DNA of 64,000 bases from Methylohalomonas lacus (GTDB lineage Bacteria; Pseudomonadota; Gammaproteobacteria; Methylohalomonadales; Methylohalomonadaceae). Position 1 is the first letter of the stretch, and the number at the start of each line of letters is the position of its first letter. The notes under the pieces are model-generated. The model saw only the letters and a list, made by a program, of their open reading frames with translations. It searched no databases and was not told the origin of the DNA. Position numbers and translations under genes: made by a program. Positions 32,527-33,730 of the stretch are shown piece by piece. The stretch is from contig NZ_JANUCT010000012.1 in the NCBI RefSeq assembly GCF_024808875.1, forward strand, positions 1 through 64,000, in the 5' to 3' direction.

Positions 32527-32607
32527 GGTGAATTCCTCAGCGCATTTGATTCTGTGGGGTTATTGGCGCGCACGGTAACACATCTGCCTGCTGCGGACTG
32601 GTCGTCG

Positions 32608-32736
32608 CCAACCACCTGGTTGGTTGCCAGCAACCATCTGGTTGCAGCCAATCACCCTGTCAGGACGTTTCGTCGATGCCGGAAAATTCAATAAATTCTT
32701 GATTATTAATGATTCTAAAACCAACTCCTGAGTTGG
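32608..32736. promoter_or_regulatory. Three related dyads upstream of the pqqA pair
   Basis: CCAACCA-CC-TGGTTGG (32608-32623) and GCAACCA-TC-TGGTTGC (32630-32645) share exact CAACCA/TGGTTG half-sites with a two-base spacer and lie 22 bp apart, two helical turns. A third, CCAACTC-CT-GAGTTGG (32721-32736), keeps the CCAAC...GTTGG frame. Two-base loops are too tight for RNA hairpins, so a DNA-binding protein is more likely. AT-rich sequence at 32680-32720 probably holds the pqqA promoter. Confidence 0.55.
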
Positions 32737-32802
32737 CATGCGTTCTGCATGATCCACGGTAACAGCGAGTGAGCTGACCAAACGATCGACAGGAGAAAGA
32801 CG

Positions 32803-32877
32803 ATGAAATGGGAAACCCCGGCTTATAACGACATCCGCTTCGGCTTCGAAGTGACGATGTACATCAACAACAAGTAA
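32803..32877 (+). CDS. pqqA: PQQ precursor peptide PqqA, copy 1
   Basis: A 24-residue peptide, MKWETPAYNDIRFGFEVTMY then INNK. Glu16 and Tyr20, the residues cross-linked by the radical SAM enzyme PqqE to build pyrroloquinoline quinone, sit in the invariant E-V-T-M-Y arrangement. AGGAG lies eight bases before the ATG. No pqqB, C, D or E gene occurs in the window, so this is an orphan precursor whose modifying enzymes must be encoded elsewhere. Copy 2 follows after 65 bases. Confidence 0.93.
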   Translation: MKWETPAYNDIRFGFEVTMYINNK

Positions 32878-32942
32878 GACTTGTTGCGACAGAATTCAGG
32901 CAACGTCACGAGACGTTAATCCACTAACTGGAGGTGTTTATC

Positions 32943-33017
32943 ATGAAATGGGAAACTCCCGCTTATAACGACATCCGCTTCGGCTTCGAAGTGACGATGT
33001 ATATCAACAACAAGTAA
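32943..33017 (+). CDS. pqqA: PQQ precursor peptide PqqA, copy 2
   Basis: Encodes exactly the same 24 residues as copy 1. The two coding sequences differ at three of 75 bases, all synonymous (ACC/ACT, CCG/CCC, TAC/TAT), so the peptide is under selection or the duplication is fairly recent. It has its own strong ribosome-binding site, GGAGGTG. A clear terminator follows 24 bases after the stop, ending a two-cistron transcript dedicated to the peptide. Confidence 0.93.
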   Translation: MKWETPAYNDIRFGFEVTMYINNK

Positions 33018-33040
33018 GCATTAGCACTTGTTGTACCCGC

Positions 33041-33072
33041 AAAACCCCGCTCCGGCGGGGTTTTGTTTTTTG
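33041..33072 (+). terminator. Rho-independent terminator of the pqqA pair
   Basis: AAAACCCCGC and GCGGGGTTTT pair over a TCCG tetraloop (33041-33064), followed by GTTTTTT. It lies 24 bases after the second pqqA stop. Confidence 0.92.
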
Positions 33073-33208: not shown

Positions 33209-33730
33209 ATGAAAATCACCGACAAAGATCCAGAGCGACATAACAGCATTGAATACCCGATGGAGTTATCGGCGCCGCCCTACGCCCCGGTACCGGTGGC
33301 GGACGAGAAGGATGAGCAGCGCAACGTCGCCCGGCATCACACGAACCAGAAACTCGACGAGTTGAAGGAGCAGTACGACCTGGCGCGTCAGCAGCTCGAG
33401 GCCATCGAACGCCAGGTCAAGGGTACCGTGGATCGCCTGCAGGTCACCGAGGCGGTACTGGAAGCGGACTACCAGTTCTCGCCGGTGGTCATGAAGACCT
33501 ATTACCTGTACTGGCATAGCGGCAAGCAAAAGTACGTGCTCAGCCCCACCGGTCCGCAGGCATGGAGCTGCGGTGCGCCGGACCACTGGGAGTACCAGTC
33601 GGCGGTACGTCTGCTCGGCGATTCCACCTGGGAGCCGGTCGAGGTCAATGAACCCATGGATGCGGACGCCGCCCGGCAGGGTGCTGACAGCGGCTCCCAG
33701 GGCGATACCATCGACGGCGAGACCGTCTAG
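33209..33730 (+). CDS. DUF2452 family protein
   Basis: 173 residues, cytoplasmic. The DUF2452 core is visible: the N-terminal NSIEYPMELSAPPYAPVP, the coiled-coil QKLDELKEQYDLARQQLEAIERQV, and the C-terminal YYLYWHSGKQKYVLSPTGPQAW. The function is unknown. The tail is acidic and low in complexity. It stands alone, after the pqqA terminator and before the dioxygenase. Confidence 0.88.
   Translation: MKITDKDPERHNSIEYPMELSAPPYAPVPVADEKDEQRNVARHHTNQKLDELKEQYDLARQQLEAIERQVKGTVDRLQVTEAVLEADYQFSPVVMKTYYLYWHSGKQKYVLSPTGPQAWSCGAPDHWEYQSAVRLLGDSTWEPVEVNEPMDADAARQGADSGSQGDTIDGETV

What the first reader, a model, noticed from the sequence alone, without database searches (positions are those of the whole stretch)
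32803..33072. Two identical orphan PqqA peptides in tandem with their own terminator
Each 75-base gene has a ribosome-binding site and encodes the same 24 residues, differing only by three synonymous bases. No pqqBCDE is nearby and a strong terminator ends the unit. Doubling the dose of the precursor away from the processing genes suggests high demand for PQQ. They are too short for most gene finders and easily missed.
Basis: partly seen in the sequence, partly recalled or inferred. Interest (0 to 1): 0.75.

Follow-up and report, generated by a model that had tools for sequence, protein, structure and literature searches.

The report
Twin PQQ-precursor genes, shared sigma54 switch
Two back-to-back copies of a tiny gene for the raw material of the redox cofactor PQQ sit in a methanol-oxidising bacterium, and DNA signals around them, recurring in many related bacteria, point to a dedicated and apparently undescribed two-component, sigma54-type switch that controls PQQ precursor supply.

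Summary
In detail: two pqqA genes (32803-32877, 32943-33017) encode the same 24 residues, differ by three synonymous bases, have ribosome-binding sites and end at a strong terminator. Several pqqA copies per genome is a known trait of methylotrophs. This genome (mxaF plus two xoxF-type dehydrogenases) has four: this pair, a solo copy on C7 and one heading pqqACDE on C3 (pqqB 8.5 kb away). So the pair is extra dose, not a lone source. The new part is regulation. All three pqqA units carry a -24/-12 (sigma54) promoter and, about 80-165 bp further upstream, paired 16-bp palindromes TGGTT-N6-AACCA. In 34 loci from other genomes a histidine kinase with an NtrC-type response regulator is encoded divergently from pqqA; this genome has its orthologue, with the palindrome still in front of it but no pqqA there. 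Among 370 gammaproteobacterial genomes the kinase occurs in 28, all with pqqA (50 have pqqA). The palindrome precedes pqqA in 25/28 kinase-positive and 0/22 kinase-negative genomes. Best reading: a PQQ-precursor regulon driven by this two-component system through sigma54. I found no description of it in the papers searched. Binding, promoter use and the signal are inferred; nothing was measured.

The parts
32599..32614 (.). upstream activator site 1, TGGTCGTCGCCAACCA (palindrome TGG-N10-CCA)
   Evidence: same element before the other pqqA units and before kinase-linked pqqA elsewhere
32621..32636 (.). upstream activator site 2, TGGTTGCCAGCAACCA; the only exact TGGTTG-N4-CAACCA in the genome, starts 22 bp after site 1
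   Evidence: 10 of 13 neighbouring dyad pairs in the survey are spaced 22 bp
32639..32654 (.). possible third, weaker site TGGTTGCAGCCAATCA (one mismatch)
32734..32749 (+). sigma54-type -24/-12 promoter TGGCATGCGTTCTGCA
   Evidence: (one of 11 exact matches in 2.76 Mb; the pattern read backwards gives 1-2 per strand)
32791..32795 (+). ribosome-binding site of copy 1 (AGGAG)
   Evidence: sequence
32803..32877 (+). pqqA copy 1, 24 aa
32930..32934 (+). ribosome-binding site of copy 2 (GGAGG)
   Evidence: sequence
32943..33017 (+). pqqA copy 2, identical 24 aa, three synonymous differences
33039..33066 (+). intrinsic terminator, 12-bp stem, 4-base loop, T run

Best explanation
The tandem genes form one short transcription unit that makes two PqqA peptides per transcript, the substrate that PqqE/PqqD/PqqB/PqqC (encoded on contig C3) turn into PQQ for the methanol dehydrogenases. 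The unit is one of three pqqA units in the genome (tandem pair, solo copy, pqqACDE) controlled together: an NtrC-type response regulator, phosphorylated by its partner histidine kinase (C3:98.2-101.2 kb), binds paired TGGTT-N6-AACCA palindromes and opens a sigma54 promoter at -24/-12. More pqqA units under one switch raise precursor supply relative to the reusable enzymes when the kinase is active. Shown here: gene identity, promoter and palindrome sequences and their recurrence, kinase/pqqA linkage and co-occurrence. Inferred: that the regulator binds these sites, that sigma54 is used, that activation (not repression) results, and what the kinase senses (unknown).
For: PqqA family hits far above cut-offs. 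Four pqqA in the genome with pqqACDE and pqqB on C3. Three PQQ methanol dehydrogenase genes. All three pqqA units have two dyads spaced 22-23 bp and a -24/-12 element (one mismatch in C3); of 11 exact sigma54-like sites in the genome only the two at pqqA have dyads in the 250 bp upstream. Kinase and sigma54-type regulator divergent from pqqA in 34 collection loci; upstream of these pqqA the dyad TGG-N10-CCA is in 32/34 (1-9 at other spacings) and TGGCA-N7-TGC in 15/34 (0-1 at other spacings). The genome's own C3 regulator is the closest of its NtrC-type proteins to the pqqA-linked one (56% identity; next 38%), and the palindrome TGGTCTATATCAACCA lies just before its kinase gene. Class survey: kinase in 28/370 genomes, all 28 among the 50 with pqqA (Fisher 9.5e-29). 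Palindrome score above the 99th percentile of shuffles in 25/28 kinase-positive versus 0/22 kinase-negative genomes, p = 5e-11, with overlapping loci removed from training; an untrained pattern gives 20/28 vs 1/22. In Salinisphaera the recognition helix changes (TRMALR to SRGALR) together with the palindrome (TGGCCACTATTGGCCA).
Against: No expression or binding data. The kinase genes are not beside any pqqA in this genome. The C3 promoter has one mismatch (TGGCACGGTTCTGGCA). The regulator's sigma54-contact loop is GAFTSA/GAFTNA rather than GAFTGA in most members. Three kinase-positive genomes (G109, G147, G157) lack the main palindrome; G157 has the Salinisphaera form and G147 a different shared palindrome. 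The -24/-12 element is also in 5/22 kinase-negative genomes. Genomes share ancestry, so the p values overstate independence: at family level 11 of 14 kinase-positive families have the site.
Confidence: 0.8

Rival explanations
1. Ordinary gene-dose redundancy: the tandem pair is a recent duplication that simply raises PqqA output, and the sigma54/two-component control is incidental or belongs to another regulator.
For: Multi-copy pqqA is common in methylotrophs without known special control (PMC4109929; PMC9851590; PMC6520949). Near-identical DNA (3 of 75 bases differ) suggests recent duplication or gene conversion. Tandem pairs recur in G008, G011, G063, G107, G147.
Against: The same dyads and -24/-12 boxes precede all three units and those of distant kinase-positive genomes, but no kinase-negative genome reaches the palindrome threshold.
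Confidence: 0.12
2. The palindromes are sites of a repressor or of another regulator, and the two-component system is linked to PQQ genes for another reason, for example control of the neighbouring ABC transporter.
For: In this genome and in L088, L107, L118, L126 the two-component genes lie divergent from an ABC ATPase/permease pair related to alcohol-system transporters. The palindrome lies just in front of the kinase start, which would also fit autoregulation.
Against: A position 80-165 bp upstream of a sigma54-type promoter with paired 22-bp-spaced sites is the usual layout for NtrC-type activators (general knowledge); pqqA is the frequent neighbour whereas the ABC pair is present in a minority.
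Confidence: 0.12
3. The short ORFs are not translated or are inactive relics.
For: No expression data; a full pqqACDE with its own pqqA exists.
Against: Only synonymous differences between copies, conserved Glu and Tyr in the core, ribosome-binding sites, promoter and terminator, family scores far above cut-off.
Confidence: 0.03

Closest known systems
Multi-copy pqqA of methylotrophs (Methylovorus sp. MP688, Methylophilaceae, M. extorquens AM1, Beijerinckiaceae RH AL1, strain FJNU-6)
   Same: Several near-identical PqqA genes, some solo and away from the pqq operon, in organisms with several PQQ methanol dehydrogenases (PMC4109929, PMC6520949, PMC9851590, PMC10848612)
   Different: Here the copies sit in three units with a common sigma54-type promoter and palindrome; the papers read report condition-dependent expression but no such regulator
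NtrC/AtoC-type two-component systems with sigma54
   Same: Membrane kinase plus receiver-AAA-Fis regulator; paired upstream palindromes and a -24/-12 promoter (regulator's best NCBIfam hits are AtoC, the PEP-CTERM regulator and NtrC)
   Different: Below the cut-off of every named equivalog; linked to pqqA/PQQ genes; loop GAFT[NSH]A in most members
Pseudomonas PQQ/alcohol regulation (AgmR, ErbR/ExaE-type regulators)
   Same: A signal system co-ordinates PQQ synthesis with PQQ alcohol dehydrogenases; ped-type ABC transporter genes nearby
   Different: Those are LuxR-type response regulators, not sigma54 activators, and act on a pqq operon (PMC12997753, and general knowledge)

Membership tests
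PqqA (PQQ precursor peptide) | Score over curated family cut-offs | tested here: met
   TIGR02107 47.5 bits vs 20; PF08042 43.8 vs 21.1
PqqA (PQQ precursor peptide) | Core Glu-x-x-x-Tyr that becomes PQQ | tested here: met
   GFEVTMY in both copies
PqqA (PQQ precursor peptide) | Maturation genes pqqB, C, D, E in the same genome | tested here: met
   C3, all over their NCBIfam cut-offs
PqqA (PQQ precursor peptide) | Peptide is made and converted to PQQ | not testable with these tools
   needs peptide or mutant data
Sigma54-dependent promoter | TGGCAYG-N5-TGCW, GG and GC elements at fixed spacing | tested here: met
   32734-32749 exact; C7 exact; C3 one mismatch
Sigma54-dependent promoter | Transcription needs RpoN | not testable with these tools
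   no expression data
NtrC-type two-component regulon | Kinase and receiver-AAA-Fis regulator encoded together | tested here: met
   L083 6245-9198; pair conserved in nearly all 80 loci
NtrC-type two-component regulon | Regulator has the canonical GAFTGA loop | tested here: inconclusive
   GAFTSA here; GAFTNA/GAFTSA in most relatives; the threonine is kept
NtrC-type two-component regulon | Regulator binds the upstream palindromes | not tested
   only co-occurrence and helix/site co-variation
Known named sensor/regulator families (AtoSC, ZraSR, NtrBC, GlrKR) | NCBIfam equivalog cut-off | tested here: not met
   best 394 bits vs 714 for AtoC; 137 vs 646 for AtoS

The most novel reading that the evidence does not exclude
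The kinase is a dedicated sensor of PQQ status (free PQQ, PQQ-enzyme activity or an alcohol signal at the membrane) and the system is a widespread, undescribed supply switch for a peptide-derived cofactor, acting on precursor gene dose rather than on the modifying enzymes.
Probability: 0.4. Interest if true: 0.72.

Novelty: new variant of a known kind. Interest (0 to 1): 0.56.

Why it matters
How bacteria match PQQ supply to the amount of PQQ enzymes is poorly understood; PMC9851590 calls the regulation of PQQ biosynthesis unclear even in model bacteria. A specific kinase/regulator pair with a defined candidate binding site, found in this survey only in genomes that also carry pqqA and spread over 14 families, makes that question directly testable and could be useful for PQQ production.

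Tried and rejected
The exact sigma54 match at C3:149828, about 1 kb before pqqB, lies inside a moaC-like gene on the other strand and has no palindrome upstream, so it is not counted. The palindrome was looked for before mxaF and both xoxF genes: none convincing, so the regulon seems limited to the pqqA units (and perhaps the two-component genes) in this genome. A neighbouring two-component pair 6-8 kb from the C7 pqqA was considered as the regulator and rejected: 34% identity to the pqqA-linked regulator against 56% for the C3 pair. Literature searches found no description of sigma54 or of this kinase controlling pqqA; subscription journals are mostly not held, so this is not proof of absence. 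A particulate methane/ammonia monooxygenase was not found, but that search had no positive control.

Full report
Check of the observation. The window holds two ORFs of 75 bases, 32803-32877 and 32943-33017, that encode the same peptide MKWETPAYNDIRFGFEVTMYINNK. They differ at three third-codon positions only. Each has a Shine-Dalgarno sequence. The peptides match the PqqA families far above the curated cut-offs. A 12-bp hairpin with a T run ends the unit. No sigma70-like promoter was found in front of the genes on their strand, and no PqqB-E homologue lies in the window.

The rest of the genome. The window is part of a 2.76 Mb, 38-contig genome of about 99% completeness. It has four pqqA: this pair, a solo copy on C7 followed by its own terminator-like hairpin, and one heading pqqACDE on C3. 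pqqB lies 8.5 kb from that operon inside a molybdenum-cofactor gene neighbourhood. PqqB, C, D and E all pass their family cut-offs. The genome encodes a mxaFJGI-RS-like methanol dehydrogenase cluster and two more xoxF-type enzymes, so it is most likely a methylotroph with several PQQ enzymes. The extra copies therefore add to a complete pathway.

Known background. Several pqqA per genome, many of them solo, is documented for methylotrophs: 3-12 copies in Methylophilaceae (PMC4109929), five in a strain where pqqA1 and a solo pqqA3 dominate expression (PMC9851590), extra homologues in M. extorquens AM1 and citation of Ge et al. 2015 on Methylovorus (PMC6520949), three in RH AL1 (PMC10848612). 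The tandem pair by itself is thus a new member of a known kind.

Shared promoter architecture. Reading upstream of the three pqqA units showed a -24/-12 element in each (TGGCATGCGTTCTGCA in the window, TGGCACGGGAACTGCA on C7, TGGCACGGTTCTGGCA on C3) and, further upstream, pairs of 16-bp palindromes TGG-N10-CCA spaced 22-23 bp. Genome-wide, 11 places match TGGCAYG-N5-TGCW exactly; one is in front of a glutamine synthetase gene, a classic sigma54 target, and only the two pqqA ones have such palindromes in the 250 bp upstream.

Finding the regulator. In two class-mates (G028, G008) the pqqA gene is divergent from a histidine kinase, followed in G028 by a receiver-AAA-Fis regulator (the G008 contig ends). 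The genome of the window has orthologues at C3:98.2-101.2 kb (kinase 52%, regulator 56% identical, next best regulator 38%). There the pair is divergent from an ABC ATPase/permease, as in the relatives, but pqqA is missing from between them; a palindrome TGGTCTATATCAACCA remains in front of the kinase. A scan of the 84,980-species genome collection with the kinase alignment gave 80 loci; in 34 of them pqqA lies a few hundred bases divergent from the kinase (one further locus has a pqqA elsewhere), and the regulator follows the kinase in nearly all. In Salinisphaera and a few others pqqBCDE lie there too.

Tests. Upstream of the kinase-linked pqqA, TGG-N10-CCA is in 32 of 34 while other spacings give 1-9, TGGT-N8-ACCA in 24 while other spacings give 0-2, and TGGCA-N7-TGC in 15 while other spacings give 0-1. 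In 370 gammaproteobacterial genomes 50 have pqqA and 28 have the kinase, all within the 50 (Fisher 9.5e-29). A palindrome profile trained on loci that do not overlap the test set scores above the 99th percentile of shuffled upstreams in 25 of 28 kinase-positive and 0 of 22 kinase-negative genomes (same result); the simple pattern TGGY-N8-RCCA gives 20/28 against 1/22. At family level 11 of 14 kinase-positive families have it. Kinase-positive genomes also have more than one pqqA more often (17/28 vs 4/22, p = 0.004). In Salinisphaera both the regulator's recognition helix and the palindrome differ in step.

Reading. The simplest account is a two-component, sigma54-type switch that turns on PQQ-precursor genes wherever they stand, so that extra pqqA units can be added to one regulon. 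What is shown is sequence identity, placement, recurrence and co-occurrence. Binding, sigma54 dependence, direction of control and the signal are inferred. Weak points are the GAFTSA loop, the one-mismatch C3 promoter, shared ancestry among genomes, and kinase-positive genomes without the site (G109, G147, and G157 with a variant).

Verdict. The conserved regulatory module is the part worth follow-up; I found no report of it in the searched papers, with the limit that many journals are not held.

Noticed in passing
L236, L237, L240, L242, L243, L244 (genome G147, nine pqqA): A class-mate with nine pqqA genes lacks the TGGTT-N6-AACCA sites but shares another palindrome, about TCAGGAAAATCCTGA, in front of several of its pqqA genes: probably a different regulator for a multi-copy pqqA set.
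   Followed up: partly
L257, L260, L261, L262, L263: A second PqqA-like type (WVDPAYCDLRLGFEVTAYVYV...) in genomes G121, G362, G301, G367, G108, most with the same palindrome and/or -24/-12 element; lacks the usual N-x-R/K end.
   Followed up: no
L153, L155, L158, L159 (Salinisphaera): Variant palindrome TGGCCACTATTGGCCA together with a changed recognition helix (SRGALR) in the pqq-linked regulator: a natural specificity switch.
   Followed up: partly
L083:4359-6088 (G000 C3): ABC ATPase/permease pair related to the alcohol-system (PedC/PQQ_ABC) transporters, divergent from the kinase; in G028, G008, L088 and L126 it directly follows pqqA.
   Followed up: partly
L011:903-1844 (G000 C3): pqqB lies among molybdenum-cofactor biosynthesis genes, separate from pqqACDE.
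   Followed up: no
window 33209-33730: ORF of 173 aa just downstream of the terminator with a weak DUF2452 match; not obviously related to PQQ.
   Followed up: no
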